Source of the DNA: Hawksworthiomyces lignivorus
Lineage: Eukaryota > Ascomycota > Sordariomycetes > Ophiostomatales > Ophiostomataceae
Direction of reading: 5' to 3'
NCBI GenBank assembly: GCA_002917075.1
Contig: NTMA01000022.1
Coordinates: 248,001 to 312,000 of the forward strand
DNA: 64,000 nucleotides
Below are positions 16,379-34,811 of the stretch, in pieces (position 1 is the stretch's first letter; every line of letters starts with the position of its first letter). The notes below the pieces were generated by a model. It saw only the letters and a program-made list of their open reading frames with translations, searched no databases and was not told the origin of the DNA. A program made the position numbers and the translations under genes.

Positions 16379-17422
16379 GGTTTCTTAGTACGTAGCTATA
16401 AATCAACTAGTGAGCGCATTCAACTGTTGGGAACCGAATCCGCGGCGGTGAAGAAGCGTGAGAATTGAAAGTGGTGCATTTCAAATCGAGGAATCCAACG
16501 AAGGATAAGCCCCCAAGTCTCAGGCGGACAATTAATTTCCCCGCGTGAAAAATTTGACAGCCACCTTTGATGTGACTCCTCTATCTACTAGACAATAGCG
16601 TCGGCGGAATCTCCAGGCTGTCTTGGGGCGGGGAATATCATCCGTACGAGTACATGTACGAGGATGCCACGGGGGACCGCACCCTTGGTAACATATCAGA
16701 GGATAAGTGGGCCTCCACGTGGATCGGCCCGTGTCATCGTGGGGGTCTCAGCATGTTGCTGCGACAATGTTGTCGTGTTGGATTTCATAGAGAATGCCGA
16801 GGAATTCTGCGCCTTGTGAAACAAGAGCGCTTATTGTCGGGTGGGAATTCTCTGGATATCTGAGTCGTGACGTTGGTTTAAACTAGTTGAGGAAATGGGT
16901 ACGCTGCCGTAGATGGTAGGACAATCGTCAACACGAGAGAGTACGTCGAAGACTAGACGGGTCCAGATATCTGGGTGTGCCAACGGTGAGTTTCATGCAT
17001 GCGCCCTGTATGTAGCACGTAACGTACTACAATTTTACGCAGTATCGTTCTGCTGTGAGTAATTCTCAGCACGGTCATTCTGAATCATAATTCATCAGAA
17101 AGCTCTCAGGCACCTCATTGGTCTAATTTTAAGGCTCAGTGGCAATGCAGCGGCTTGTTACTTAGGTAGTGTTACTGTGTAGCTCCAATGAGCTTAGTGC
17201 GATGGTCTAGGATCACGAGCTTCACTCCCACAATCGACATCAATTACTGCCAGGTGCTCGTATATAAAGAGCAAACAACCTATGCTGTGATGTAGGCTTA
17301 TTCTTTATTATCTCAATTCATACAGACACCAATAACCAAGAGTTAGAAGGCGAGACACATTCGTATCAAGAGTCGAGTTCGAATAAAACCCACAACAGAG
17401 GCTTCTTCTAAATTCTACCAAA
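16379..17422. other. Divergent promoter region, NLR-like and Rei1-like genes
   Basis: About 1 kb between divergent starts. One TATA box candidate at 17261-17268 points to the Rei1-like gene. A short frame at 16654-16863 has no recognisable features and I leave it out. Confidence 0.5.
17261..17268 (+). promoter_or_regulatory. TATA box candidate of the Rei1-like gene
   Basis: TATATAAA lies about 155 bp upstream of the ATG at 17423, followed by a CA-rich 5' leader. Spacing fits a start near 17290-17300. Confidence 0.45.
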
Positions 17423-18421
17423 ATGCCAGACACAATAGTAACCCCAACTCCAACTGAAACCGGGGCTCTGCCAACTATACCAATGAGCTCACCTTCAGAC
17501 CTAGAAATACGCCCTCAGCTAGCGCAGCTGGCCAGCTCTACAAATGTGGACTTGCCACCATTTGTCCCTGGGCAGTGCTTGTTTTGCCCCATCCGCTTAC
17601 CGTGCTTCGCTGACAGCGTAGCGCATATGCAAAAATTGCACGGCCTATTTGTTCCACACCGGCACCATCTCATCGTCAACCTTGAGACCCTCTTTCAGCA
17701 CCTGTACATTATTATTTTCGGATACCAAGAGTGCATACAGTGCGGAATAGAAAAGGCTACTGTTCAAGCCATACAACAGCATATGATCCACAAAGGCCAT
17801 TGCACATTTGATGTGTGGGAATGGGAAAGCGGCTCAGAGTTTGCTGAATTTTACGATTTCTCAGAAACAGAAGAAGCTGGTGCGGAGAGCGGCAGTGAAA
17901 GCGAGAACAGCGATAAGAATGCAGAGGCAACGGCGGCTCGGTCATACCGAAAGCCGCTGCGGGTAGACGAAGACTCCATTCGTCTTCCCTCTGGAAAAAT
18001 CATAGCTAAACGATCGACCATGCAAGCGGTGCCGCCATCCACGCAGCTGCGCCGCCGCATTCGGGCTTTGGCTGCGCAATCCGATCAACCGCTGCTCGCA
18101 CCAGGCGACGAGTCGCCTGTCGAAGAAATCCCCAGCGAGGACCCCGACGCGGGCGCACAAGAAAGACGCGTATTGTCCAAGCGGGAGAAGCGCAAGAGGG
18201 TTGAAGCGCCTCATCATCTGGCAAATATGAGTACCAACGACCAGAAGAGTCTAGTACATTTGCCCGCATCTCAGCAGCGCGCCATAGTTGGGGCACAGCA
18301 GAGACAAGCAGAGAAGGCACAGAAAGAAGAGAAACGCCAGCAGAGCAAGATCGATCGGAAGGGGAACAAGAATCTCTATGCTTACTGGAATACGGAGACA
18401 CCTATCTACCAATGTGGTTAG
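17423..18421 (+). CDS. Rei1/ZNF622-like C2H2 zinc-finger protein, shortened
   Basis: Single exon, 332 residues. Two zinc fingers are visible: C52-x2-C55...H68, H73 and C104-x2-C107...H120, H126. They are separated by the HGLFVPHRHHLIVNLETL segment typical of the central part of Rei1/Reh1 (zf-C2H2_2), and WESGSEFAEFYDFS follows as in that family. Rei1 acts in cytoplasmic maturation of 60S ribosomal subunits. The first U1-type finger at the N-terminus of true Rei1 is missing; instead there is a 40-residue Thr/Pro-rich leader. The C-terminal third is charged and probably disordered. It may be a divergent paralogue with changed function rather than the housekeeping copy. Confidence 0.75.
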   Translation: MPDTIVTPTPTETGALPTIPMSSPSDLEIRPQLAQLASSTNVDLPPFVPGQCLFCPIRLPCFADSVAHMQKLHGLFVPHRHHLIVNLETLFQHLYIIIFGYQECIQCGIEKATVQAIQQHMIHKGHCTFDVWEWESGSEFAEFYDFSETEEAGAESGSESENSDKNAEATAARSYRKPLRVDEDSIRLPSGKIIAKRSTMQAVPPSTQLRRRIRALAAQSDQPLLAPGDESPVEEIPSEDPDAGAQERRVLSKREKRKRVEAPHHLANMSTNDQKSLVHLPASQQRAIVGAQQRQAEKAQKEEKRQQSKIDRKGNKNLYAYWNTETPIYQCG

Positions 18422-19413
18422 ATGGGTACCAATCACGCGAGCACGACTCTCTATTCTCCTGGCAGTATTTCATTGGCTGCATTTACAGGTCGACCTCGTC
18501 TGCTAAAAGACTGGGGTGCAATGACCCAGACTTCTAGAGAGACACGAAAAATGATTTTGTGATCCCGTTATTGCGAGCGAAAATACGGAGCATTACGGAC
18601 AAAAGTATGTATTGTGGTGGAATTATCAGGTCGGCGAAAGAGTGGCACGGGGCTCATGTAATTCTCCACAGTGGACAGGAGACCTGCATTGTTAGTGGCA
18701 CACAGGCTTGATTTCGCACGTCGGAGTACGGAGTAATTGGCGGAGTAAGTCGGAGTAAGATGGATTCTAGCAGTGATAAGAAAAATTTGTTTGTCAAGGA
18801 GCGGTCAACTTTGCCCGAAAATCAGATGATGTTTTGGCAGCTGATGACATTAATTTAGCTGGGAATACCAGTTTTTCTCCAACTCTTCGCCGTTCAACCT
18901 AATTGTATCAATATGGTACGACCAAGGTGAAGAGAAATGCCACATTATATAATTTTCTTTCTTCTGTCGTCTCGGTTCTTCCTAGCTCAGCCGAGATGTC
19001 AGGCGGCTGCTGCGCTATGCAAATTAGATTTATAGCCTTAAACTCACTGTGGGTGAGTCTCGCTCCGCTGATAATTAGGACTCATTCTTAGCTGGAACCC
19101 AAAATTTTAAGCTCCATTCTCACTAGGGCAATAATTGCGCCCCATGGAATGCCACCTGGAAATCTGCCAGCGACAAAAAGAATTGCAGGATGCATGTGTA
19201 ACCGGCTCAAGTGCTGTAATATTATAGTGTTGGATACGCACAGGATTGTGAGATAAAATGATCAGCCCTGTTCAAAGGTATTGAGTCTACCGAATCGTCC
19301 TGCTCGAGATCGTAGTCTCAGCCGCTACCGTGCGAAGGTGTGGTATTTAATTTTGCAAGTTCGACGCAAACCGTAACAAAATGGAAGCAACAATAGCCTG
19401 CGCTCATCTTCCT
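18422..19413. other. Convergent spacer with CGGAGTA repeats
   Basis: About 1 kb between the Rei1-like gene and the 3' end of the Zn2Cys6 regulator gene. The notable content is a cluster of four CGGAGTA copies at 18722-18757. No coding sequence supported. Confidence 0.55.
18722..18757 (+). repeat. Four direct copies of CGGAGTA
   Basis: Heptamers start at 18722, 18729, 18741 and 18751, two of them back to back. The same word or its complement recurs in other spacers. Its position downstream of two convergent genes argues that the word is not only a promoter element. Confidence 0.8.
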
Positions 19414-21970
19414 TCAGTCTATAAACTGAGCAAAGTCACTGGTGAAATCCAAGTGATTTACTTCTGTTGAATTTGGCCCTGGCAAACCGATCCTACGAAA
19501 AACAGAGTTAGCTCAAACATCAAACCCGGCACCACGATGCTTCCGTAACTCACCATAGCTCGGGTCTGAATTCCCACTGCTCAAAGGTGTCACCGTTTGA
19601 AGGGGGAGATATGATTGGGAGACTTGTAGGAGAGAAGTCGTCCGCTCGCACAGCATCTGTATGTTTCCGTATTGTGGAATCTACTACGCGTTTTAAAATG
19701 CCCCGGGCTCTGCAGAAGAGCTTATAATTTCCATCACTAGAGTCATATAGATATTCCATGTGGGCAATGAGGACGGATAGGTCTCGAATTGCTTTGATGA
19801 ATGTCGAAGAACTCTGCCGCCTCTGTGGTGGTTGGTGCGACCCAGCCAACATGCATTTGGCGAGTGCCCCGGCAGCTGGCAGACCAAACGCGGACACCTA
19901 AACCACATGTTAGCGCTGTGTAATTATATTGAGAAAGAATACAGGCAAAGAAAGGAAAGAAATTTAAGGGAGACCGACTCGCCAAGCCAATGTGTTCAGT
20001 CCCAGCCGGTTCAGACACTCGCGCATGGTCAGAGCTTCATTAACCCAAGCAAGTAAATCGCTTGCGACGACAAAGAGAGAATCAAGGTCCCCCGTTCCAT
20101 GAATTGAAGCAGTCCATTCGATAAGAAAGATCGTCTGGAGATAGTACAAGCGAATCAGATAAAGCGTGTCCGTTTCTTGGCCTGGGCGTCTCGTCATCCA
20201 CACTTCTCGTGCGGGGATGGCAAGGAATGGAGGTAGCTCGTTCCAGGCCTCCTCGATCCTAATGCGAAGATTCCTAAGCATACGTGTTAATAAATTTAAT
20301 TCCCATCTTTTGTGCTCCCCAGTAGCAGCTCGTCACCTTATAAGTCGGTCTCTGTCTGGAACGTCAGGACCGAGGATCGCCTCAAGAGCCTCCTCCCGAA
20401 TTTTGGACGTCGTCATAGACCATCGGATAACTGCATGAGTACGTATCTGTCCTAAAGTATTCCAGCCGTGTCCGTCTAAATGCTTCAACTCCTCTTGCAG
20501 AGCCTCAGCAGGCAAACCGTAGGCATCTGGATTTACATCCAAAGGCACGTGGATCACGCAATGGCGCTTGCTGATGCGCGGAGGCCTTCCGAGAAAAACG
20601 GAAAAGCTGATGTCGGAGCCGTAGAGGAGGGCAAAGATATGCTTTCGAAGTTCTACCAAGAAAAACGGCAAAACACCTCCATTGTCCAGTTTTTGGTGAA
20701 TACCGCGGCCAAACAGAGCATTGATAGCAGTGTTCAGGCGACCCCAAGCCCGAAAGCCTAGCAAACTACTTGTCAGCTCTCCTGCACCACCTGCTCTCCG
20801 TTCTTTCGAGACAACTTACTTTGGTGCCCAAAATAGACTGAATGGAGAAGAAAGCTCTCGTATAGAAAGATGATGTGAACATCGTTCAAGATGTCAAGCG
20901 ATTCACAGAATGACGCACATCTGTTGCTTGCGTGAAGAAGGTTCCGTCCCAGGGTGTGCCTCTCCTGCTCGGTTTTGAAGACCGCATGGGGTGCTCGAAG
21001 TTTGCTGACAGCATTGCTGATTTTTCGCATTCAGATATGAGCGTCATTCACTCCGGTTGCCAAGCTTCTGTGGGTGGCCACTTACCCTGCAAGTGCTAAG
21101 ATCAATCCGATTGTTTCCCATCTCAAGTTTTGGTTGGTGTACTGCCCTGCAAATTCCGTCACAGATGCCCCAGGGTGGATATCTGTTGAGATTTTCGCAT
21201 TGTCGAAGAGCCGGCGCGACAACGCAAACAGCTCAGCGCGCCACGCAGCAGCTTGTTGTGCTGTTGGTACAATATCTGTGATAGTTTCCAGGAAGGGCCG
21301 CACTAACAAAGACCCTACATGAACTTCCAGTCCTTTACCCTCCCATTCTTCAAAAAGATGCTGGAGAATGCCATGGGCAAATAGTGTCGTGAGAAGCTCC
21401 AGCACCTGGACACCCTCCTCTACCATAGCAGTGCCGCTCATCACAAGCATGGTGCTTCGGATAGACTCCTCTTCGGCACCATTTTCGCTCTCTATGGAAG
21501 GCTCACCACTGCCTTGCTGAAGTTCTGGGTGAATATTTGCGTCGTAGCTCGTTCCACTCTCGATATTGTCTAGAATGGTGCTCAGGGATGAAGATCCTTG
21601 AAATCCTGGATTCGGATACAATGTCAGCTGCAGAGCCTGTGGCTCAGAGTCTGATGCTGGAGAGTGGTTAGAGAGCGGTGTCGTCCGTCCATTGTGAAAT
21701 CTAAAATCGTCAGCTAAATGAATGGAGTGCGACCCCGCAGATTATGTCGAGGGTGAGCCGCTACCTCGTTTGAGAAACTTGAGAAGCCTCGAAGTGATGC
21801 CGGCTTCTCTTGAACGGGTTTTTGCGGTAGATGCATTGGCCAGCGGTTCCTTTTTTTGAGCATCGCGAGCAGATCGGGCGGCCGTGGTCGCAGGCTAGCT
21901 TTGCTACGCGGCAGGGTTCGCAGGATGCGATTCTCACAGGCCGTTTTGCATTGGTTGTTGAACTCGTCAT
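19414..21970 (-). CDS. Zn2Cys6 transcription factor, candidate regulator of the amino-sugar cluster
   Basis: Seven exons on the minus strand: 21970-21765, 21700-21086, 21016-20820, 20757-20337, 20273-19979, 19897-19554 and 19492-19414. Introns are 61-81 bp; 718 residues. The zinc cluster is C17-x2-C20-x6-C27-x6-C34-x2-C37-x8-C46. The Fungal_trans (PF04082) middle region includes RKHIFALLYGSDISFSVFLGRPP, the usual arginine and GRPP landmarks. All joins agree in phase; only the exon 5/6 join is weak because the in-frame donor is GTCGGT, not GTRAGT. It lies about 590 bp from nagB, in the same direction, at the edge of the catabolic cluster. A cluster-specific regulator role is inferred from position. 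A CGGAGTCTCC word lies about 50 bp upstream of its start (22025), which would allow autoregulation. Confidence 0.82.
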
Positions 21971-22556
21971 TTTGGGTCAAGAAGGCGCTTTTAGATACTA
22001 TATATCATCCTCAAAGCGAAATCTCGGAGTCTCCATCGATTATTGAAGTGCGACAGTCGCTAAGCAGTTCTCAGACGGGTGTTGTCAGGGTGAACGAAAA
22101 GCCTCGATGGCGACCTGGGACATCTGGGTAAATAAGTTGGGGGTGGGGAAAGAAATTCGCAGTCATCAGTACGCTCATTCGACCTTTGCTAGGTAGCTAG
22201 CGATTTCTGGGAATAGCTCGAGCCAGTGGAGCTTCCTAAGCTAGGGTATGATAACGCTAAATAGCGCCGACTCTCTTATGTGGCAAATACGACAAGGGCC
22301 GGTGCCAAGCTTCCACTAGGTATTTGGTAGCTCAAAAGAAAGGCAAAGAAAGGTCATTGGCTTCTTGTTGTGCGTGCCATACATGCAGAAATACTGTCAT
22401 AAAAGATCGAATTCATGCCATTAAACTTGGGTCAATCGTGTTGCTAATGAGAAGACATCATCTTGTTTAATTGTTCTACTTGATAGTGCGTAAAGGCACT
22501 TGGTATCATTAGGTTCTGGAAAAGACAGAGAAGTCCAGCCTGCGTCGTGACTGGCT
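21971..22556. other. Spacer between regulator and nagB
   Basis: About 590 bp. It holds the regulator promoter, including CGGAG at 22025-22029, and the 3' flank of nagB. No further gene seen. Confidence 0.5.
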
Positions 22557-23784
22557 TCAGAACCCGTTCACAATCTTGATGCGATCTTTCATTCTATCGG
22601 GTACAAAATCAGGAGAAACGGATCGTACTGGATATTCCAGAGCAGGAACCGCCAACTCGGTAGCGGCCGGGATCACATCAGCCGCAAAAGGGCTATGGAT
22701 GCCGTTACCGTTCGTAATAGATTTTTTGGTTGCAAGGGGACCATTTCTCGCTTTTGGTGCCAGAGTTTGATCGAAGCCTTGTTCTTGAGCAACCTTTTCG
22801 ATACTTTTGAAATACTACAGGATGGCCGTTAGTGCTCAGCATGTTACAAAAATGAGCCTGAAAAACATATTCTGAGTTGCAAGGCCATACCTTGACTGTC
22901 TTGACTTGAAGCTCAAGCGTCGCATCATCATCTACAACAATCATAGGATGTCTGTGGAGCTGCAAAGCTGATAGTGTCCACATATGGTTTACGCCATGTT
23001 CGATGGTCTTTTGTAATGCCAACGCTTTCTTTGCGCCTAGTACAATCACAATGACCTCGTGTGCATCGAGAACCGTTTGGACGCCAACTGTAAGCGCCAT
23101 CTTTGGAACTTGTGTGATGTCGTTGTCAAAAAATCGTGCATTCGCAAGGATGGTATCGTATGCTAGAGTCTTCACTCTTGTTCTTGATGCTAGACTGGAA
23201 CCAGGCTCATTAAAGGCGATGTGTCCATCTTCGCCAATGCCCGCTAGAAAGAGGTCGATACCTCCTACAGCTTTAATCTTCTCTTCATATGCAATGCACT
23301 CTGCGTCCAGGTCGGTGGCATTTCCGTTTAATAGGTTCACATTCCGAGGGTCGATGTCGATATGAGAGAATAGATGCTTCCACATGAAAGAATGGTAGCT
23401 TTCCGGTGAATCCCTGGGAAGTCCAATATACTCATCCTGCCTTTGTAGTTAGATGACATCTTCTATTATAAGACTCACTAAACTCCCGTGCCGTGCAAGA
23501 GCGTACCATATTAAACGTGACGACATGTTTAAACGAGATCTAAATTACCGCCATCTTAGTTATCCAACTATCGAACATTGCAGTCATGGTAATAATTGAC
23601 TTACCTCGCCTGCTTTGAATTTTTGAACCAAGATCCTGTAAATACCAATTGGGCTGGTCCCTGTCGGAAGACCTAAGACAAAAGGACGGACTGCAGAAGG
23701 ATTGCACTGCTTTATCCGCGATATTATGTAGTTGGCAATGTATGAGCTGACAGCTTCAGCATCATCCCGAATGATGAGCCTCAT
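22557..23784 (-). CDS. nagB: Glucosamine-6-phosphate deaminase (isomerising)
   Basis: Four exons on the minus strand, 23784-23605, 23539-23507, 23436-22891 and 22814-22557; 338 residues. It converts glucosamine-6-P to fructose-6-P and ammonia in the cytosol, the last step of GlcNAc catabolism. Landmarks: LGLPTGTSP near 38-46 (phosphate loop), DEYIGLP starting at D72, and [14 protein letters not shown] with D141, H143 and E148. As I recall the E. coli enzyme, these are the same residue numbers as its catalytic residues. The second exon is only 33 bp (11 codons) and is required to restore the conserved VVTFNMDEY join. A C-terminal extension of about 70 residues beyond the bacterial length is fungal-style. 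The gene is divergent from nagA, sharing an 820-bp upstream region. Confidence 0.95.
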
Positions 23785-24605
23785 GATATTTTCAGAATGA
23801 CAATTAAAGTCAAAGGTGAAAGTGTTGCAATAATTGAAAGAGAGAAGCCTTATACAGAGCCTAGAAATTTGAGTTTCAAACAAGCATCTAAGCAAACAAG
23901 TGTCACCAACTTGGCGCTCGATAAATTATGTATCTTACTGTCCACTGAGTTGCTAATAAACATATATTTAGAGCTTTCGTAGGCCGTAGAATAAATTTAC
24001 AGGTAGTGTTCCTTTCGCCGTATCAAACAAATCTCGCCAATGCTGCAATTGAGCCTCGACATATCATACGCATGGCAGTAGCCGGTCGGAGTAAACACTT
24101 CTTTCGCCGGACTCGAACTGCACTATATTACTTGGAGGGGGGTGTATTAGTCGGAGTCCTATTCATTCCCATATTCCAACCTACTTTTATTCTTTCTCCG
24201 TAAGGGCTGTAGCACGTTATTGAGAACAATGGTGGAAGGCGACTAATTACAACTATGTGGGCCGAAATACAGAAGTTTGGTATGGCAATACCAACTGCAA
24301 AATCCGCTGCGTAATTCACTCAAAAGTACTAAGTTAGGCCGGTGAAATAGGCGTCAATGACTCCGAGGAGGCAATGTGGAGCAGGTTTTCTTCGTTCATG
24401 TATCAGCTCCAATCAATCGCAAAATGTCATATTCCACTCGTTACTGAACGTGCTAGAATACTTCGTACTATATTATTACTCTGTTGTGCTAGTTTAAATG
24501 ATTAGTGTTAGATAACTCAATTAAGAAAGTAATTAAATGCAGTGTTGAGAACTCAGTTAATTCGTCTTGAGACGCAAGTGGTGAACCAGAAAACACACTT
24601 CAACA
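23785..24605. promoter_or_regulatory. Shared divergent promoter region nagB/nagA
   Basis: About 820 bp between the divergent starts of nagB and nagA. It holds CGGAGTA at 24087-24093, CGGAGTC at 24152-24158 and CTCCG words near 24198 and 24361. These could be half-sites of a Zn2Cys6 factor. No binding evidence exists beyond the word matches. Confidence 0.45.
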
Positions 24606-26007
24606 ATGGCGTTCTCTAAAGTTGGTATCACCAAAATCACCAACTGCCGACTACTACAAGACGATAAGTTGGTAGATGCTGACCTCTGGGTTAGCTCTAT
24701 TACGGGCAAGGTTGTTGATAGCCAAACCGCTTTCTTTGACGAGCATCGGGTTCCAGACCAAATTCTGGATGTGGGTGGCCGCATTGTTGCACCTGGCCTC
24801 ATAGACTGCCAGCTTAACGGTGCATTTGGATTCAACTTCTCTAGCAGTATAGAAGACGGCTCTTTATATCGGAAGAAGATATCTGTTGTGAACAAAGAAT
24901 TGATAAAGACCGGGGTAACATCCTACTTACCTACCGTTACGAGCCAGAAGCCAGAATTATACCGCAGAGTAAGATAATGATACCAACCCCCTCTCACACA
25001 AGCTCATAGATAGAAATTAACAACACAGACTTTGCCATTTCTTGGTCCTTCAGGAGCAGATCGCAACTACCAAGATGGTTCTGAGTCTCTGGGAGCCCAT
25101 GTTGAGGGCCCCTTTTTGAGCCCCACGAAAAATGGCATTCACGACGTAAGTGTTCTTCGGAACGCTGAAGATTTCGATGACATCCTCGATTGTTATGGAG
25201 AGGAAAATGTAGCCGAAAATAAAATACAGATGATCACGGTTGCCCCAGAAAGAGGCCGGATGATGCAACTCATCCCCAAATTAAAAGCAAGGGGCGTGGT
25301 CTGCTCCATCGGGCATACTGAAGCAACATATGAAGATGCCTCAAAAGCTGTGGAGGCCGGAGCGACAATGATTACGCACCTTTTCAATGCCATGCGACCC
25401 CTTCACCATCGCAATCCGGGGATATTTGGCGTCCTTGGAAGCGTCAACAGCAGAAATCGCCCATACTTCGGCATCATTGCAGATGGCATCCATCTCCATC
25501 CCACCACCATCAAGATCGCTTTCGATGCCCATCCCGGTGGCCTCATTCTCGTTACAGATGCCATGCACATGGTCGGATTGCCAGATGGCCGATATGACTG
25601 GACCAACGGTGGTGTTACTGGTGTTATTGTCAAAGTGGGCTCGAAGCTTCTCTTGGATGGCTCTGACAAAATCGCAGGAAGGTAGGTTGAATATCCAGAC
25701 GACCATGGGCTAAACAGATAAATAATACTGACAGAAAATTAAAAATAGCTCGATTAGTCTCATTGAGTGTGTAAACAATTTTCTTACTTGGACTGGCGCG
25801 ACCATTGCTCAGGCGTTGAATGCTGTGACGGCTACTCCAGCCGCCATGCTTGGTCTTACGGGAGTGAAAGGCTCGCTAGTTACAGGAGCCGACGCAGATC
25901 TGGTGGTACTCTCAGAAAAAATTACGAATGGTGCTACACAGCTCGTCATCGACGAAGTCTGGAAATTTGGCGCACCAGCCTTCCGTCGACAAGTTAAAAC
26001 ACTTTAA
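24606..26007 (+). CDS. nagA: N-acetylglucosamine-6-phosphate deacetylase
   Basis: Three exons, 24606-24968, 25029-25681 and 25749-26007, all phase-consistent; 424 residues. It removes acetate from GlcNAc-6-P, giving glucosamine-6-P for NagB. The amidohydrolase fold is clear: APGLIDCQLNGAFG near 62-75, metal-site Glu147 in GAHVEGPFL, His217 in SIGHTEAT, His238 in THLFNAM, and Asp298 in VTDAM. The third exon restores the C-terminal ALNAVTATPAAMLGL helix and GADADLVVLSE strand. The gene lies between nagB (divergent) and murQ (same direction), matching consecutive pathway steps. In this cluster it would receive GlcNAc-6-P from both the kinase and the MurQ reaction. Confidence 0.95.
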
Positions 26008-26608
26008 ACAAAATCAGCGATAGAGACTACAAGCAGGTCATTTTAGTTAATAGACGGCGACGGTGATACCAGATAGAAAGGCGCACTAGACAGGTTCATT
26101 GAAAATTATTATACATGCAGCTGCAGAAAGTTCAGCATATATCTCTTATGAATGGACATGTTACATAGGAAAGCCTTGGTAAAGCTCTACTGCAGGGCGC
26201 ACACCGGCCTCTTCGGGAATGTTTTGGCTTGGCATTCATAGAATAAGAGCAGAGGTTCATCTAGACTGGCGCAATGGTGTTGCATTTCAGTGGGTCGGGG
26301 AGCCGAAGGCGAGAAAATTCTCTTTGTCTAGCACGGAGTAAAGACGAACGCTAAATTCATTTCACGCAGCCACTCATTCCCACTCTCGGAGAATGAAGTA
26401 CTCCGTACCTAGAGCCGCCAATTGTTCTGTCCGAGCCCAAGCTGTGTGTGGAAACGTAACCCCCCCGCGGAAATTAGTATTGGTCAGACGCACGGGAAAA
26501 TTCCACCCTGCCTATGTATATATTCTCTAGGCAAACTATTTGTCAATCTAGATCCAGATTCGATATCATATTTTGAAACAAAATCAGCGCGTGAGCGGAT
26601 CTCACAGG
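26008..26608. other. nagA-murQ spacer with murQ promoter
   Basis: About 600 bp containing the nagA 3' flank and the murQ promoter. A TATATA stretch near 26516-26523 lies about 90 bp upstream of the murQ ATG. An inverted CGGAG/CTCCG repeat at 26387-26405 is listed separately. Confidence 0.5.
26387..26405. promoter_or_regulatory. CGGAG-N9-CTCCG inverted repeat upstream of murQ
   Basis: Perfect 5-bp arms CGGAG and CTCCG, placing CGG and CCG 13 bp apart, about 200 bp before the murQ ATG. Inverted CGG triplets are the classic target of Zn2Cys6 dimers. Function is inferred. Confidence 0.4.
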
Positions 26609-27901
26609 ATGACGGCCGCCTCATTGGGAGACTTGCAAACGGAGCAGCGGAACTCGAAGACATCCCAGATCGACTGCGTACCGACCATCGAGCTGTGCCG
26701 TGAGTTTACACATGTGTTGATACTTGTATAGAGATGTGCAACTTTTACCAGTATGGAATAACTTACAACTCTCTCTGAGCATAGAGATCATCAATGAGCA
26801 GGACCAGGAAGTTGCGGGAGCGGTGAAGCTGTGTCTTGCCGAGATTGCGCAAGCAATTGATCTCATCGTACCTCGCATCGCTTCTGGCGGCAGAGTTATA
26901 TACATCGGCGCGGGAACCAGCGGCAGGTATGCTTTCCTAATGGCAAGACGAAGTCTCCTTTTGAGCTCGAATGCTGACACTTTCATCTCGGATAGATTAG
27001 GAGTACTAGATGCATCAGAGATGTGCGTTATTCGCCTAGCGATATATGTGGTGTAAGACTAACTGAAGTTTCATAGTCCCCCGACATTCTCGGCACCTCC
27101 ATGGCAATTTGTTGGGCTGATAGCCGGCGGTGACAAAGCTTTACGCACAGCGGTAGAGGGAGCAGAGGATTCAGTGACGCTAGCAGGAGAAGAGCTCTCA
27201 AACTTGTCGCCTCCTATTGGCAGCAACGACGTCCTCATCGGAATAGCATCATCAGGACGTACACCTTACGCTCTTGGTGGATTAAAATATGCTAGATCAG
27301 CGGGAGCTGCGACGATAGGGTTAGCTTGTGTCAAGCCGAGCCAGATGAGAGGTCTATGCGATGTCCTCATCGAGTGTGTGACAGGACCAGAGGTAGTGAC
27401 CGGAAGCACAAGAATGAAGGCTGGCACTGCGACTAAAATGGTAGGACATGACGTGAACAACGCACCTACTAGCTCTTATTCGTGTCTCTGTCGCTAACTT
27501 CGACTTATTTTGCAGATTCTAAACATGATTTCTACGGGCTCACAAGTCCGAACGGGAAAGACCTTTGGAAACCTGGTACGTGTCCGTAGATTGATATGTG
27601 AATTTGCTCAAAGCCAGCTGGGAGTTTGCTAACCCTATAGATGGTCGACCTGCAAATGTCAAACGAGAAGCTCAGAGACCGGGCCCGTCGTGTTGTCCGC
27701 TCGGTAGTGCCAGCCAATTCAGCACGAGACGTCTGCAAGGACTCTGAAGTAGACGATATTCTGGCTGGCTGCGACGGCAACGTCAAGCTCAGTATCTTAG
27801 TAGCAATATCAGGAATGTCACCAGAGCGAGCAAAAGCAGTGTTGCAGAAAAATGGAGGAATGCTGAGCAAGGCTCTCCGAGGTATCAATAATAAAATATA
27901 A
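26609..27901 (+). CDS. murQ: MurQ-type N-acetylmuramate-6-phosphate etherase (SIS domain)
   Basis: Six exons, 26609-26699, 26785-26926, 26996-27022, 27077-27440, 27516-27575 and 27641-27901; 314 residues, close to the bacterial length of about 300. The bacterial enzyme cleaves the lactyl ether of MurNAc-6-P, giving GlcNAc-6-P and D-lactate. Landmarks: LQTEQRN at the N-terminus, sugar-phosphate SIS motif IGAGTSGR near 74-81, LDASE with Glu86, EGAED with Glu117, ASSGRTPY, EVVTGSTRMKAGTATK, and the GKTFGNLMVD join. The two glutamates reported as important in E. coli MurQ (Glu83, Glu114, from memory) are both kept at identical spacing. A 27-bp exon carries LGVLDASE. The gene is intron-rich and so not recent bacterial contamination. 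A regulatory, GKRP-like role is the alternative, but conserved catalytic residues and cluster context favour an enzyme. Confidence 0.92.
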
Positions 27902-28257
27902 ATGTACTTTTCATTGTTTGCATCATCTGTTAAAGGATTCCTACAATCTGCATCAGCATTCTCTGGCCTTTGTATTGAAATTTCAATCGGAGTTATATTA
28001 GTATAGATTAATAGAGAGCTATATCATCTACAACCGCTTGGAAAGCAAGCCTGAAATAAATTTAGATGTAATGTCGTCAATTGAAGTCTCCTCTTCATCG
28101 CGGAAAAATGTTGCTTGTGATATGTTTTTGTTCTACAGATATGAATGCTGACAATCGGGAGTGGAAGACGCCGGCATCACCTCGTACATCTCACTTCAGT
28201 TCCGTGAAATAGCTACTTTCATGGCCGTTGTCTGCTTCAGCACATTTGGAATCTATT
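27902..28257. other. Convergent spacer murQ / sugar kinase
   Basis: About 355 bp of AT-rich sequence between convergent 3' ends. It should hold both polyadenylation regions; nothing else seen. Confidence 0.5.
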
Positions 28258-29472
28258 TCAAACACCGATTTTATTATTTGCTAAGAATCGCGCCCCTTCG
28301 AGAGCAGGCCTTTCTACCTTTATTGTCCACTTAAACTCAATGCCCCTTCGCATCAGTTCTTTCTGCACCCTACTGTTGTATACATCATTGCACAAAACAC
28401 CTCCTGCCATTACAAAAGAAGTGGCAGCTGGGCTCATCTTCTGAAGAAGGAGCAGATCAGCCACTAAATCAGCAAGGCTTGTAGCTCCGCGCTCAAGAAT
28501 TTGCTTCGCCATGATATCTGTCTCACTGAGTGATAAGACTAACTGGGCAGCTCGGGCTATAGTCTTTGGTGGCGAAGGTGAATTGGGTGTCGATCTAGTA
28601 TTGCTAGGTGCCAGAATACAGGAGAGTAGATTAGTAGGGTCGAATTCTCCCTCAGTCTCTCTGGAGAAATATTCGAACACCGCTTCGCTGAGAGGGGGAA
28701 AATCCTGCTGAAGATTGTCGGACCTTAGGGAATCACTCGTCCTTAAGGCAACCCTCAGCGCCTCTCTACCGATAGCGAATCCGGAACCCTCATCTCCCAG
28801 AAGCGGACCCCAGCCGCCTATTCTTCCTGTCCTCGAGAACTTATTGCTGCTCTTATCACGGATATAGCTCATAGCAACAGATCCTGTTCCAGCTACAAGA
28901 ACAACGGCTGATTCTATAGAGGGCTGCATGGCGGCATTGACAGATAAGAGGTCAATATCGGTGGTGATGGTCAAACGCGGGCCTACAGGTATGCCAAGCA
29001 GCTGGGCAACGGCAGTATCAATTGCAGGAGCCAAGGATGGTCTGTCGTATCCAGCAATCCCAACCCAAGCGGACGAGATAGGCAAGCTGAAGATGGTTTC
29101 TGACTTGGCATCCACATGTTTAGCGATAGCAACATTGATGGCTGAAGTGATAACTGAAATGGTTGCCTCGACACCGATAGTAGAACTATTATTGTTAGAT
29201 TCATTATTCGACTTTATGCCCCTGGCATACAGCAACAAAAGTGGGGTACACTATGAGCATGGAGAAGCGACTCACGGATTACTGGGGCCAGCTTCTCCTA
29301 TGGAGGCTGCACCTGAAGAGCTCAACAAGACGGCGGTACACGAAGATCCTCCGCCGTCGACGCACAGGAAGTATGTGAGGCTTGGTGCCGTGGCATTTTG
29401 AATATCTGAGATTTTGGCAGAGATAGATTTCGCCCCTCTGCTCTCAGTTGCATGACTCATGGCAGCTTCCAT
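28258..29472 (-). CDS. BadF/NAGK-type N-acetylhexosamine kinase
   Basis: Two exons on the minus strand, 29472-29276 and 29221-28258, with a 54-bp intron; 386 residues from the chosen Met. In-frame Met codons at 29544 and 29460 are alternatives. ASKHA-fold landmarks: phosphate loop VDGGGSSCTAVL at about 38-49, VGIAGYDRP, VLVAGTGSVAMSY, and GGWGPLLGDEGSGFAIG, which is diagnostic of the BadF/BadG/BcrA/BcrD group that includes animal NAGK and clostridial MurK. Those enzymes phosphorylate GlcNAc, and MurK also MurNAc, at C6. Here the product would feed NagA directly or MurQ. It is convergent with murQ and divergent from the transporter. Substrate choice between GlcNAc and MurNAc cannot be decided from sequence. 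Confidence 0.9.
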
Positions 29473-30035
29473 ATCGAGCTCTTCTGCGGAGTGGTGCTTA
29501 TCGAAGCGAATGAAGGTGTTCAACGGCAAGCTGCAGCAATTCATGCACGTAGTTGAGCAAGCAGATCAATAGATTGCATGCTGATATAACGAAAACTGGT
29601 TGCTGGGACCGAGTACCTGGCATCCTTTGCCCCTAGGTGCTTCCGAGGTCCAGTCATTTTTCTTTTAATTCAGCGCCACCCACATTTAGGGTCGGCCAAT
29701 GTGTTATCAGTGGGTACGGAACTATAGACTCGCCACGCGACCAACTAGATACAGAAAACTAGCACAATGATTCTTTGCCCGGAGTGATCGGAGTACACCT
29801 ACTCCGAATACAATTACGGAGTATTGAGATTGCGGGGAATTGGTGCAAAACTTCTTTTAATGTCTCGTGCAGCTTCACCCGATATCAGGAGGTGGAATTA
29901 AATATATAATATCTCCAGAAAATACGATTATACGAATTTTCTTTGTTATGAATTTCATATTTTCTAATTCTAACAGTTGATTCGGCTGGTCCTTTTTATT
30001 CTCTTACTCGTGCACACCAATATTCTACCATAGTC
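29473..30035. promoter_or_regulatory. Shared divergent promoter region kinase / transporter
   Basis: About 560 bp between the divergent kinase and transporter genes. Three CGGAGT words lie within 29788-29825, two of them as an inverted repeat. An AT-rich TATA-like stretch lies near 29903-29912. Confidence 0.5.
29789..29806. promoter_or_regulatory. CGGAGTA-N4-TACTCCG inverted repeat
   Basis: Perfect 7-bp arms with a 4-bp centre, so CGG and CCG are 12 bp apart, about 230 bp upstream of the transporter ATG. A further CGGAGTA begins at about 29817. This is the strongest operator-like site in the cluster and resembles the murQ upstream repeat. It is a candidate for the nearby Zn2Cys6 regulator; unproven. 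Confidence 0.5.
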
Positions 30036-31578
30036 ATGGAAGAGAGCAAAGCCGACACACCAGCCGTCGAGGCACAGCACCCGGTGCAGCCAGCGGTTGA
30101 AGGAGAGGACAGCTCATGGAGCCCACCAGCCTCGAAGCTCGTGCGCTTTTACTCTCACCCATGGACGCAAATCAACCTGATTAGCTTTATCTTCTTCTGC
30201 CTTCCTGGAGTGCGTCCTATATTTTGAGTTCTATTCAGCGAAGATTAGATTTTTTTTTGTGCGGATTGTTTATAATTGTCTTTTCCGTTATGTGCTGACT
30301 TGTTTTGCAATCCAGATGTACAATGCGCTGAGTGGACTCGGTGGCTCTGGCCAAGTCAACTCGACGGTCGCAGCCAATGCAACGGTCGCCCTCCTCTCGA
30401 CGACCGCCGCTACGGCTCTCTTCTTTGTGGGGCCTATCTTCTCGTATGTCGGCCCGCGCATCTGCTTTCTCATCGGCGGGTGGACGTATGCCTTGTACAG
30501 CGGTTCTCTGCTCTCCTACAACCACAACAAGAACGGCGCCTTTGTCATCGCGTCAGGCGCCATCCTCGGTGTGGGCGCCTCCTTCATCTGGATCGTCCAA
30601 GGCGCGACCATGACGACCTATGTTCCCGAGAGCCAGAAGGGCCGCGCGATCGCCGTCTTCTGGATCATCTTCAACCTGGGCGGCGGCGTCGGTTCGCTGG
30701 CCTCGTTCGGGCTCAACTTCCACTCCAAGAGCGGCACGGTGACGGACTCGACGTACATTGCGCTCATGGTGATCATGATCTTTGGCTGGCTGCTGGGCGT
30801 GTTCATCTGCAACCCGCAGCGGATCCGGCTGGCGCAGCTGCACGCCGCCATGGAGACGGAGCGGCGCACGCTCAAGGGGACGATCTCGATCGCGGTGCAG
30901 ACGATGATGAGCTGGCGCGTGGCGTGCATGCTGCCGCTCTTCTTCTGCGCCAACGTGTTCTACTCGTACCAGCAGAACAACGTCAACGGCTACACGTTTA
31001 ACATCCGCAGCCGCTCGCTCAACTCGGCCCTGTACTGGATGGCGCAGATGGTGGGCGGCCTGCTGATCGGCGTCATCCTGGATCTGCCGTGGTTCTCGCG
31101 GCCGATGCGCGCGCGCATCGGCTGGGCCGTCCTGTTCGTGACGGGCATGGTCATCTGGGGCGGCGGCTACGCCTTCCAGAAGTGGGAGGAGGCGCGGCTC
31201 GCGCGCGGCCTCAAGCAGGACATTGACTACATGCAGTCGTCCCTCGCCGCCGGCCCCATGTTCCTGTACATCTTCTACGGCGCGTACGATGCCCTGTGGC
31301 AGGGCTTCTGCTACTGGCTCATCGGCACCGAGTCCAACAGCACCGGCCGCGCGGCCGTCCTCGTCGGCGCGTACAAGACGTTCCAGTCGACCGGCGGCGC
31401 CATGGCCTGGCGCATCAACGCCCTCGGCAAGTCCGGCATGACGCAGTTCGCCATGGACTGGGGCCTGTGCATGGGCAGCCTGCTGATCGTCCTTCCCACG
31501 GTGTGGACAGTCACCCGGCAGACGACGCTCGAGCAGGAGGCGGGATTCTTGCCATCGGATACGAAGGAAGATAATTAA
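30036..31578 (+). CDS. UNC93-like MFS transporter, candidate amino-sugar importer
   Basis: Two exons, 30036-30209 and 30316-31578, with a 106-bp GTGCGT...CAG intron in phase 0; 478 residues. About 11-12 hydrophobic helices are visible, beginning with INLISFIFFCLPG. The pattern, including the GLGGSGQ and NATVALLS segments after helix 1 and the AMAWRINALG segment near the end, fits the UNC93-like branch of fungal MFS proteins. Plasma-membrane location is expected. Fungal GlcNAc importers (Ngt1) are also MFS proteins, and this gene shares a promoter region with the sugar kinase, so import of GlcNAc, MurNAc or a related sugar is the best inference. The second exon is notably GC-rich compared with its flanks. 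Other substrates cannot be excluded. Confidence 0.85.
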
Positions 31579-33081: not shown

Positions 33082-34811
33082 ATGTCTTCTCAGAAACACC
33101 AGGGCGAGGAGCTCGAGGGCGACATTGCCTTCATCAAGACTCCCCCAGCTCTGCCCTCCAAGTTTGCAACGGGCGTCGACTGCGGCGTCGAAGTCACCAA
33201 CGTGAGTACCATGGAGCTTCGTGCTTGATACGCTAGCTTGCTGTCCCTCGACTATGACCTGTGGTCTTGCTAAATCTGACCCCGATTGCAGTTTGCCACC
33301 ATCAACAACGCTCCGCTGCCCGCCGAGGGCCCCGGTAACGAGTCCTTCTCGAACTATGTTCTCGGCGGCCTGCTGCTGGGCGTGCCCCTCTTTATCGCTC
33401 GCAGCCTCGGCGGCGGCTTCAAGACGACCATCTTCTTCATCGTGGTCCTCCTCTTCCCGATCTTGATCGCCTACTGGACTGTCGCCTCCACCTTCTCGCC
33501 GCGCATCAACGACAAGGCCAAGCTGCCCGGCCGCCCCGTCGAGCACTACATCACGTTCAAGAAGGAGGCGGACCGCCAGCGCTGGAAGGGCCACACCAAG
33601 ATCCCCATGAAGACGTTCTACGAGATGTACTTTGACGGCGACGTCGACTTCAACGGCGACTGCCTGGACGTCATGGAGTACCGCCACGACTGGGCCAACT
33701 TCTCGTTCACGTGGCCGCTGTTCCAGTTCATCATCTTCACCTTCTTCATCGACGTGCTCTTCCACTCGCGCAAGCAGGATGAGGAGCAGATCCGCCCCAA
33801 CTACGACCGCGGCAACGACCACTACGCCTGGTTCCTGGGCCCGCGCATGGTCTACACCAGCGGCGTCTTCTCGGACCCGACCCGCGAGGAGACGCTCGAG
33901 GAGATGCAGGACAACAAGATGGCCATTGTGTGCGAGAAGCTCGCCCTCAAGGAGGGCGAGTCGCTGCTGGACATTGGCTGCGGCTGGGGCTCGCTGGCCC
34001 GCTTCGCCAGCGTCAACTACGGCGCCCACGTCACCGGCGTCACCCTCGCCCGCAACCAGGCCGCCTGGGGCAACGACGGCCTGCGCCGCGCCGGCATCCC
34101 CGAGAGCCAGAGCAACCTGCTGGTCATGGACTACCGCGACATCCCCGCCCGCCGCTTCAACAAGATCTCCCAGCTCGAGATGGGCGAGCACGTCGGCATC
34201 CGCCGCCTCACCACCTTCTTCCGCCAGTGCTACGACATGCTCGAGGACGACGGCGCCATGTACGTCCAGCTCTCCGGCCTGCGCCGCGCCTGGCAGTACG
34301 AGGACTTTATCTGGGGCCTCTTCCTCAACAAGTACATCTTCCCCGGCGCTGACGCCTCCACCCCGCTCGCCAACTATGTCAGCAGCCTCGAGGGCGCCGG
34401 CTTCGAGGTCAAGAGGTGAGTTTCCCGCCATGAAAGGGCCGCAAGATTTGCAGTGTTTTTTTTTCTTTTTTCCCTTGTTTGTTTTTGTGCTAATCATGGC
34501 CCGTCCGTCTCTACAGCATCGACACCGTCGGCATCCACTACTCGGGCACTCTCTGGCGCTGGTACCGCAACTGGCTCGGCAACGCCGAGACCATCAAGGC
34601 CAAGTACGGCCAGCGCTGGTACCGCATCTGGGAGCTGTTCCTGGCCTGGTCCACCATCGCCTCGCGCCAGGGCAGCGCCACCTGCTACCAGATGGTCGTC
34701 GTCAAGAACTTGAACGCCACCCACCGCGTCAAGGGCTTTGCCACCCAGTTCGGCCTGACCGGCGCCCTGGCCGCGAGCCGCGCCGCGGGCAAGGCGACCT
34801 TCCCCAAGTAA
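33082..34811 (+). CDS. Sphingolipid C9-methyltransferase
   Basis: Three exons, 33082-33201, 33292-34415 and 34517-34811, with phase-consistent introns of 90 and 101 bp; 512 residues, the usual family length. The enzyme adds the C9 methyl group to the sphingoid base of fungal glucosylceramide, using S-adenosylmethionine, at the ER membrane. Seen: a pair of membrane helices near residues 60-105, a second hydrophobic stretch (FIIFTFFIDVLF), and a cyclopropane-fatty-acid-synthase-like methyltransferase domain with LLDIGCGWG at 265-273 and the GITLA-like GVTLARNQ. The C-terminal exon keeps the WYRNWL and RIWELFLAW segments. Strong GC3 codon bias suggests high expression. No link to neighbours is apparent. 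Confidence 0.93.

What the first reader, a model, noticed from the sequence alone, without database searches (positions are those of the whole stretch)
19414..31578. Fungal amino-sugar cluster that includes a MurQ etherase
Six adjacent genes (Zn2Cys6 factor, nagB, nagA, murQ, BadF-type kinase, UNC93-like transporter) form a near-complete route from MurNAc or GlcNAc to fructose-6-P. Known fungal GlcNAc clusters (e.g. Trichoderma) combine transporter, kinase, deacetylase and deaminase. A co-clustered MurNAc-6-P etherase suggests use of bacterial cell-wall sugar, for example by a fungus that feeds on bacteria. Exon structure is seen in sequence; the MurNAc role is inference.
Basis: partly seen in the sequence, partly recalled or inferred. 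Interest (0 to 1): 0.93.

Follow-up and report, generated by a model that had tools for sequence, protein, structure and literature searches.

The report
Fungal gene cluster for bacterial wall-sugar catabolism
This fungal genome carries a gene cluster that looks built to break down N-acetylmuramic acid, a sugar of bacterial rather than fungal cell walls, and several other fungi keep its key genes side by side or fused, which suggests that some fungi live partly on bacterial cell-wall debris.

Summary
MurQ (26609-27901, six exons) passes NCBI's curated MurNAc-6-P etherase cut-off and keeps both glutamates that align with E. coli Glu83/Glu114. Its BadF-type kinase is nearest, among solved structures by sequence, to a MurNAc/GlcNAc kinase. 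The genome has two ordinary GlcNAc clusters elsewhere (hexokinase, GH3, Ndt80 factor), so this third cluster, with murQ and the genome's only BadF kinase over cut-off, is best read as dedicated to MurNAc. On another contig lies a second murQ beside an AnmK-family kinase that is distinct from the genome's levoglucosan-kinase-like copy. In several other fungi MurQ is linked or fused to one of these two kinases. Fungal MurQs form one clade apart from the bacteria sampled; the trees suggest that the window's MurQ came from the AnmK-partnered lineage and was re-paired with a BadF kinase. CGGAGT is the most enriched hexamer in the cluster's promoters. Not shown: enzyme activity, transport, growth. 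Five peptidoglycan-hydrolase families gave no match in the genome, so 'feeds on bacteria' is unsupported; scavenging released MurNAc fits better. My literature searches found no described fungal MurNAc pathway.

The parts
19414..21970 (-). Zn2Cys6 transcription factor gene (ends read by eye, inner exons not fully resolved)
   Evidence: PF00172 24.9 bits against cut-off 21 in the first exons; sequence
22557..23784 (-). nagB, glucosamine-6-phosphate deaminase, 4 exons, 338 aa
   Evidence: TIGR00502 397 bits against 237; model
23785..24605 (.). shared upstream region of nagB and nagA with CGGAGT sites
24606..26007 (+). nagA, GlcNAc-6-phosphate deacetylase, 3 exons, 424 aa
   Evidence: TIGR00221 247 bits against 226; model
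26008..26608 (.). upstream region of murQ with CGGAGT sites
26609..27901 (+). murQ1, MurNAc-6-phosphate etherase, 6 exons, 314 aa
   Evidence: TIGR00274 353 bits against 302; E86 and E117 align with E. coli Glu83 and Glu114
28258..29472 (-). BadF/MurK-type sugar kinase, 2 exons, 374 aa
   Evidence: PF01869 71 bits against 31.5; nearest solved chain C. acetobutylicum MurK 8zo3
29473..30035 (.). shared upstream region of kinase and transporter with CGGAGT sites
30036..31578 (+). UNC93-like MFS transporter, 2 exons, 478 aa
   Evidence: PF05978 and PF07690 over cut-off

Best explanation
The cluster encodes a dedicated pathway for N-acetylmuramic acid. MurNAc, or a small muropeptide sugar, enters the cell, possibly by the UNC93-like transporter (inferred, weak). 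The BadF/MurK-type kinase phosphorylates it to MurNAc-6-P (inferred from family and partner genes). MurQ splits off D-lactate to give GlcNAc-6-P (activity inferred; family membership and catalytic residues shown). NagA and NagB carry GlcNAc-6-P to glucosamine-6-P and fructose-6-P (family membership shown). The Zn2Cys6 factor probably controls the set through CGGAGT sites (enrichment shown, binding inferred). A second locus on contig C170 (Zn2Cys6 factor, anmK, murQ2, a transporter-like gene) would feed 1,6-anhydro-MurNAc in through a second kinase (inferred). It works like the bacterial murT-murK-murQ set of Tannerella forsythia joined to a fungal NagA/NagB pair.
For: MurQ1 and MurQ2 exceed the etherase equivalog cut-off. 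Position of E. coli Glu83: E in 40 of 43 fungal rows (2 gaps, 1 D); Glu114: E in 43 of 43. Kinase nearest by sequence to MurK among solved chains. Sixteen fused proteins among the hits, MurQ first in each: 2 with AnmK, 14 with BadF. Kinase and MurQ on contigs of equal length in 5 of 7 BadF entries compared, one with consecutive tags. AnmK and MurQ likewise in 7 of 17 AnmK entries compared, two with consecutive tags. Two hexokinase-based GlcNAc clusters with GH3 and NDT80 genes elsewhere in the genome. anmK beside murQ2 in this genome. The C170 AnmK lies outside the LGK clade and shares H109, P111, T118, Q120 with two bacterial AnmKs. CGGAGT: 10 sites in three promoter regions against 0.6 expected. 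T. forsythia MurK and C. acetobutylicum MurK phosphorylate MurNAc (PMC5790795, passages).
Against: No activity, transport or expression data. BadF kinases can prefer GlcNAc: C. acetobutylicum MurK slightly does. The kinase model's best fold matches are a broad-specificity archaeal hexokinase, ahead of MurK and human NAGK; its only NCBIfam match is a NagK model, far below cut-off (72.7 against 370). No peptidoglycan hydrolase of five families in the genome. murQ-nagA/nagB linkage in relatives not testable. The C170 AnmK-family protein is closer overall to levoglucosan kinase (E 1e-98 to 8e-102) than to bacterial AnmK (E about 5e-39) and misses all 14 NCBIfam AnmK cut-offs it matched. 10 of 17 AnmK entries and 2 of 7 BadF entries found no MurQ on an equal contig.
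Confidence: 0.75

Rival explanations
1. It is a third GlcNAc (chitin-derived) cluster. The BadF kinase is a GlcNAc kinase, NagA and NagB do the rest, and MurQ is a passenger or acts rarely.
For: NagA and NagB are paralogues of the genome's own GlcNAc-cluster enzymes (57% and 69% to the C104 copies). The kinase fold also matches human NAGK, and C. acetobutylicum MurK slightly prefers GlcNAc (PMC5790795). An UNC93-like transporter also sits beside the C1 GlcNAc cluster (about 36% identical in aligned pieces).
Against: Two complete hexokinase/GH3/NDT80 clusters already exist. MurQ keeps its catalytic glutamates and is 86% identical to the Niveomyces protein. Kinase and MurQ are linked or fused in several lineages.
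Confidence: 0.14
2. MurQ here is not an etherase but a regulator of a sugar kinase, like animal glucokinase regulatory protein, as the database name 'glucokinase regulator family' implies.
For: Homologues carry that name; Pfam's first hit is GKRP_SIS_N.
Against: Single SIS unit of bacterial length, full-length match to bacterial etherases at E about 1e-79 against 1e-20 or weaker for GKRP. Over the etherase cut-off. Xenopus GKRP has Ser where Glu83 aligns in its first SIS domain (by eye).
Confidence: 0.04
3. The genes serve sensing or detoxification of bacterial muropeptides (as human NAGK phosphorylates muramyl dipeptide) rather than nutrition.
For: Human NAGK phosphorylates muramyl dipeptide for NOD2 sensing (reported in PMC10465942, passage). 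No own peptidoglycan hydrolases found.
Against: A complete route to fructose-6-P with its own NagA and NagB and a transporter gene suggests catabolism.
Confidence: 0.05
4. Bacterial contamination or a chimaeric assembly.
For: The proteins are of bacterial families.
Against: Twelve GT-AG introns in the cluster. Fungal clade with support 100/99. Introns shared by the two murQ genes. Flanks of fungal gene type on the same contig.
Confidence: 0.005

Closest known systems
Tannerella forsythia murT-murK-murQ genes (PMC5790795, PMC10465942; passages)
   Same: MurNAc transporter, MurNAc 6-kinase and MurQ etherase genes next to each other, using exogenous MurNAc
   Different: Bacterial; serves MurNAc auxotrophy; nagA/nagB not named in the set in the passages seen; the kinase is only 14-15% identical in the Foldseek alignments
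Clostridium acetobutylicum MurK (8zo3; kinetics in PMC5790795 passages)
   Same: Nearest solved relative of the window kinase by sequence; acts on MurNAc and GlcNAc
   Different: Bacterial; low similarity (E 3e-12), so specificity cannot be carried over
Fungal GlcNAc catabolic cluster of Trichoderma reesei (hxk3, dac1, dam1, nag3, ron1; PMC4950302 passages)
   Same: NagA and NagB homologues clustered with a transcription factor gene
   Different: Hexokinase instead of BadF kinase, Ndt80 instead of Zn2Cys6 factor, GH3 gene, no MurQ; 'muram' and 'etherase' do not occur in its main text. This genome has two such clusters as well
E. coli AnmK and MurQ (cell-wall recycling)
   Same: MurQ, and in the second locus an AnmK-family kinase with four residues shared with E. 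coli and P. aeruginosa AnmK
   Different: Intron-bearing fungal genes; overall the kinase is nearer to levoglucosan kinase
Levoglucosan kinase of Lipomyces starkeyi (4yh5, 4zlu and others)
   Same: Same family; best solved match of the C170 kinase
   Different: Other clade; the genome's C104 copy, not the murQ-linked C170 copy, groups with it
murQ transferred into Camponotini ants (PMC13320244, passages)
   Same: A bacterial murQ established in a eukaryote
   Different: Reported source Mollicutes, one gene; the passages seen name no partner kinase and suggest antibacterial defence

Membership tests
MurQ, MurNAc-6-P etherase (TIGR00274) | Score over the curated equivalog cut-off of 302 bits | tested here: met
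   murQ1 353.2, murQ2 357.9 bits
MurQ, MurNAc-6-P etherase (TIGR00274) | Glutamates at E. coli MurQ positions 83 and 114 (catalytic roles recalled, not read here) | tested here: met
   E86 and E117 in murQ1 and in murQ2
MurQ, MurNAc-6-P etherase (TIGR00274) | Release of D-lactate from MurNAc-6-P | not testable with these tools
   needs purified protein
BadF/BadG/BcrA/BcrD kinase (PF01869) | Family score over cut-off; conserved Asp and GGWG...GD segments | tested here: met
   71 bits against 31.5; D134, G182-G185 (GGWG), G189, D190 invariant in 39 homologues, Niveomyces numbering
MurK (MurNAc-specific kinase) | Room for the lactyl group: no bulky Glu/His at the T. forsythia MurK S133-P134-L135 positions | tested here: inconclusive
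   Window kinase has GGWG there, like human NAGK and C. acetobutylicum MurK (alignments read by eye against the numbering); compatible with MurNAc, not specific for it
MurK (MurNAc-specific kinase) | MurNAc 6-kinase activity | not testable with these tools
   needs assay
AnmK (second locus, C170) | PF03702 over cut-off | tested here: met
   236 bits against 24
AnmK (second locus, C170) | NCBIfam AnmK equivalog cut-offs | tested here: not met
   best 348.4 against 387; 14 of 14 matched models below their cut-offs. Not filed as a proven AnmK
AnmK (second locus, C170) | Activity on 1,6-anhydro-MurNAc | not testable with these tools
   needs assay against anhydro-MurNAc and levoglucosan
Levoglucosan kinase (second locus, C170) | Membership of the clade that holds Lipomyces LGK | tested here: not met
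   the C104 copy falls in that 15-row clade, the C170 copy in another (quick tree)
Canonical fungal GlcNAc (RON1) cluster | Hexokinase, Ndt80 factor and GH3 genes beside NagA/NagB | tested here: not met
   PF05224 matches lie on C115, C104, C174 and C1, none in the window; no hexokinase or GH3 gene among the genes read in 19.4-31.6 kb (no separate family search); full sets on C104 and C1

The most novel reading that the evidence does not exclude
Dikaryotic fungi acquired MurQ from bacteria once and have kept a peptidoglycan-sugar salvage pathway with two entry points: an AnmK-family kinase for 1,6-anhydro-MurNAc and a BadF/MurK-type kinase for MurNAc. Etherase and kinase genes have repeatedly become neighbours, fused and swapped partners. 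The murQ-linked fungal AnmK-family kinases, whose nearest solved relatives are levoglucosan kinases, are really anhydro-MurNAc kinases, and levoglucosan kinases may be an offshoot of them.
Probability: 0.5. Interest if true: 0.82.

Novelty: new variant of a known kind. Interest (0 to 1): 0.74.

Why it matters
MurNAc is a sugar of bacterial walls, not of fungal walls. A dedicated, regulated fungal route for it would mean that some fungi tap bacterial necromass or cell-wall turnover for carbon and nitrogen, a trophic link that the fungal GlcNAc paper I looked into does not mention. It gives testable functions to fungal proteins now named 'glucokinase regulator family', 'SIS domain-containing protein' or 'UPF0075', and suggests that some kinases in a family studied for levoglucosan use have a natural role on bacterial wall sugar.

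Tried and rejected
Rejected: bacterial contamination (introns; fungal clade); GKRP-like regulation as the main reading. 'Feeds on bacteria with its own lysozymes': no GH25, GH24, SLT, NLPC/P60 or Amidase_2 match; other hydrolase families were not searched and genes cut up by introns could be missed. Origin of the window pair by splitting a MurQ-BadF fusion: holding the eight Sporothrix/Niveomyces-group MurQs together with five MurQs of the fungal BadF-fusion group (13 rows of 65) was rejected, p-AU 0.0002; that group was named after the tree had been seen. Base composition as a sign of recent transfer: GC3 0.45-0.51 for murQ1, nagA, nagB and kinase, 0.87 for the transporter, 0.66-0.67 for murQ2 and anmK; not interpretable alone. 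The levoglucosan-kinase structure paper and the MurNAc-etherase review are not held, so the pocket role of H109/P111/T118/Q120 was not checked; a passage search in PMC11980594 gave nothing on AnmK residues.

Limits: I worked from the best 120 hits of each protein search, and each search scored only the candidates sharing most words. Linkage by equal 'longest contig' is indirect except where locus tags are consecutive (S. bragantina, F. nematophilum, F. lateritium). List entries are clusters of strains, so a missing match is weak evidence. The bacterial loci came from a fusion query and the best 80 of 476 were kept, so counts are biased upwards. One search used 22 of the 39 BadF-positive loci, the first by name. 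In one search the AnmK comparison left out the C66 copy and Saitoella. I first labelled P0072 bacterial; it fell with the fungal rows and is counted with them. Trees are quick trees (SH-aLRT only); one search has bootstraps. Other outputs of G000 scans are exon-wise.
Full report
What is there. The window is bases 248001-312000 of contig C107 of a 43.7 Mb fungal genome. Between a C2H2 zinc-finger gene (17387-18421) and a methyltransferase gene with a CMAS domain (33280-34419) lie a Zn2Cys6 factor, nagB, nagA, murQ, a BadF-type kinase and an UNC93-like transporter. I built spliced models of the five non-regulator genes; all are open, with GT-AG introns. MurQ, NagA, NagB, the kinase and the transporter are over curated cut-offs.

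MurQ. murQ1 scores 353 bits against the etherase equivalog cut-off of 302 and matches solved bacterial etherases over nearly its whole length (4lzj, 1nri, 4s12). It keeps the glutamates that align with E. coli Glu83 and Glu114. In the 43 rows I took as fungal the first is E in 40 (2 gaps, 1 D) and the second in 43; in 22 bacterial rows both are E in 22. In Xenopus glucokinase regulatory protein the first position in the first SIS domain is Ser (by eye). The catalytic role of these residues is recalled, not read here.

Kinase. The nearest solved chain by sequence is C. acetobutylicum MurK (8zo3, E 3.2e-12), then S. tokodaii hexokinase and human NAGK. An AlphaFold model of the Niveomyces homologue (mean pLDDT 90.8) matches S. 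tokodaii hexokinase first, then MurK 8zo3, human NAGK, a putative NagK and T. forsythia MurK. At the positions that give room for the lactyl group in T. forsythia MurK (PMC10465942, passages) the window kinase has the GGWG segment of NAGK and C. acetobutylicum MurK, not a clashing glutamate. This permits MurNAc and proves nothing more: C. [quoted passage not shown]

Why it is not just another GlcNAc cluster. The published fungal GlcNAc cluster holds hexokinase, deacetylase, deaminase, often GH3, and the Ndt80-like factor RON1 (PMC4950302, passages). This genome has two such sets: C104:797-816k with nagB, hexokinase, NDT80, GH3 and nagA; and C1:123-137k with an UNC93-like transporter, GH3, nagB, nagA, hexokinase and NDT80. 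In the window set I read no hexokinase or GH3 gene and the NDT80 search found none, but it has murQ and the genome's only PF01869 match over cut-off. The window's NagA and NagB are 57% and 69% identical to the C104 copies. A fourth nagB lies on C112.

A second locus. A second murQ, 65.9% identical to the first, is on C170 next to an AnmK-family gene, a Zn2Cys6/Fungal_trans factor, and a transporter-like gene that I read by eye as MFS; the two exon pieces given to Pfam had no match. The two murQ genes share two intron positions and phases (codon 31 phase 1, codon 209 phase 0), as expected of a duplication inside fungi. The AnmK-family protein is closer overall to Lipomyces levoglucosan kinase than to bacterial AnmK and misses NCBI's AnmK cut-offs. 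In a quick tree the C104 copy, not this one, falls in the levoglucosan-kinase clade. I listed the 42 columns that are fixed differently (85% or more) in 15 LGK-clade rows and 23 other fungal rows: in 16 the other fungal rows carry a residue of E. coli or P. aeruginosa AnmK, in 7 the LGK rows do, in 19 neither. Four of the 16 lie close together, H109, P111, T118 and Q120, are shared by both bacterial proteins, and are L, S, A and T in LGK rows. A third AnmK-family gene on C66 is very divergent.

Linkage elsewhere. MurQ and the BadF kinase have equal longest contigs in Niveomyces, S. eucalyptigena, S. bragantina (consecutive tags), S. schenckii and one metagenome contig, 5 of the 7 BadF entries I compared; S. 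stenoceras and Grosmannia found no partner in my list. MurQ and AnmK have equal contigs in 7 of 17 AnmK entries: F. nematophilum and F. lateritium (consecutive tags), P. riverlandense, C. rosea, Dactylonectria, Cephalotrichum and the basidiomycete Naematelia. Sixteen hits are fusions, MurQ first in each: with AnmK in F. decemcellulare and Paramyrothecium; with BadF in five Beauveria entries, Rhexocercosporidium, one unnamed entry that groups with fungi (P0135), and seven unnamed entries that look bacterial, six of which fell with bacteria (P0206 was not placed). The Purpureocillium MurQ model ends with the start of a BadF domain. In 80 bacterial loci found with a fusion query, BadF was fused to MurQ in 6, within 600 bases in 32, elsewhere in the flank in 1 and absent in 41; AnmK was in the flank in 17.

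History. In a maximum-likelihood tree of 65 MurQ rows the 43 fungal rows and P0072 form one clade, support 100/99. The window's MurQ lies with the Sporothrix/Niveomyces group (8 rows, 100/100). These lie with the group of murQ2 (24 rows, 100/99), in which AnmK linkage or fusion is seen for 9 of the 16 other rows, murQ2 included. Holding the window group together with the fungal BadF-fusion MurQs is rejected (p-AU 0.0002). Yet the window kinase lies in one clade with the fungal fusion kinases (13 rows, SH-aLRT 99). So etherase and kinase seem to have different histories and to have been re-paired. The bacterial rows are murQ1's nearest hits and fusions, so the donor is not identified. By these genes the host is near Sporothrix and Niveomyces; NCBI files Niveomyces under Hypocreales and Grosmannia clavigera under Ophiostomatales. 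No Sporothrix name appears in the best 120 AnmK hits.

Regulation. Of 2048 hexamers (strands merged) CGGAGT is the most enriched in the three promoter regions (nagB/nagA, murQ, kinase/transporter): 10 against 0.6 expected, Bonferroni 2e-6, present in all three. Against non-ORF background, 0.8 to 1.4 are expected, p 2e-8 to 2e-6. Four CGGAGTA copies lie about 0.65 kb beyond the factor's 3' end. CGG half-sites suit Zn2Cys6 factors (recalled). I saw the motif by eye before the test; the test ranks all hexamers.

What remains open. There are no enzyme, transport or growth data. Five families of peptidoglycan hydrolases were not found, so the likely food is MurNAc and anhydro-MurNAc released by bacteria or by other organisms' enzymes (inference). 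Searches listed no paper on a fungal MurNAc pathway; I looked into a few of the listed papers only. They showed murQ named once in Monascus within a chitin pathway (PMC9159588, passage), a rumen ciliate with MurNAc-related transcripts (PMC6925433, passages), murQ transfer into ants (PMC13320244, passages), and an Ophiostoma novo-ulmi gene annotated as AnmK and raised in mycelium (PMC4632067, passage; its clade is unknown). Fungal AnmK/LGK proteins are studied for levoglucosan use (PMC9476349, passages).

Noticed in passing
L004:5550-8337 (G000:C170, about 274.0-276.8k): Second murQ gene directly beside an AnmK-family kinase gene, with a Zn2Cys6 factor gene and a transporter-like gene nearby.
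   Followed up: yes
L036:4752-6053 (G000:C66:19.3-20.6k): Third AnmK-family gene, very divergent (long branch, at best 32% identical to the rows used), on a 40 kb contig.
   Followed up: partly
G000:C1:123-137k (L031, L032): A second hexokinase/GH3/NDT80/nagA/nagB cluster besides the one on C104, with an UNC93-like transporter gene.
   Followed up: partly
G000:C112:285167-285880 (L038): Fourth nagB gene; the nagA search found no nagA on that contig.
   Followed up: no
window 30036-31578: Transporter GC3 is 0.87 while the other four modelled cluster genes have 0.45-0.51.
   Followed up: no
window 18722-18757: Four CGGAGTA copies within 36 bases, left of the transcription factor gene.
   Followed up: partly
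P0132, P0136, P0140, P0150, P0174 (Beauveria); P0144 (Rhexocercosporidium): Fungal proteins that fuse MurQ and a BadF kinase; one is named 'glucokinase regulator family protein'.
   Followed up: yes
P0252 (Fusarium decemcellulare), P0266 (Paramyrothecium foliicola): Fungal proteins that fuse MurQ and an AnmK-family kinase.
   Followed up: yes
P0257 (Purpureocillium lavendulum): AnmK domain and PF03663 domain in one 691 aa record; perhaps a gene-model error.
   Followed up: no
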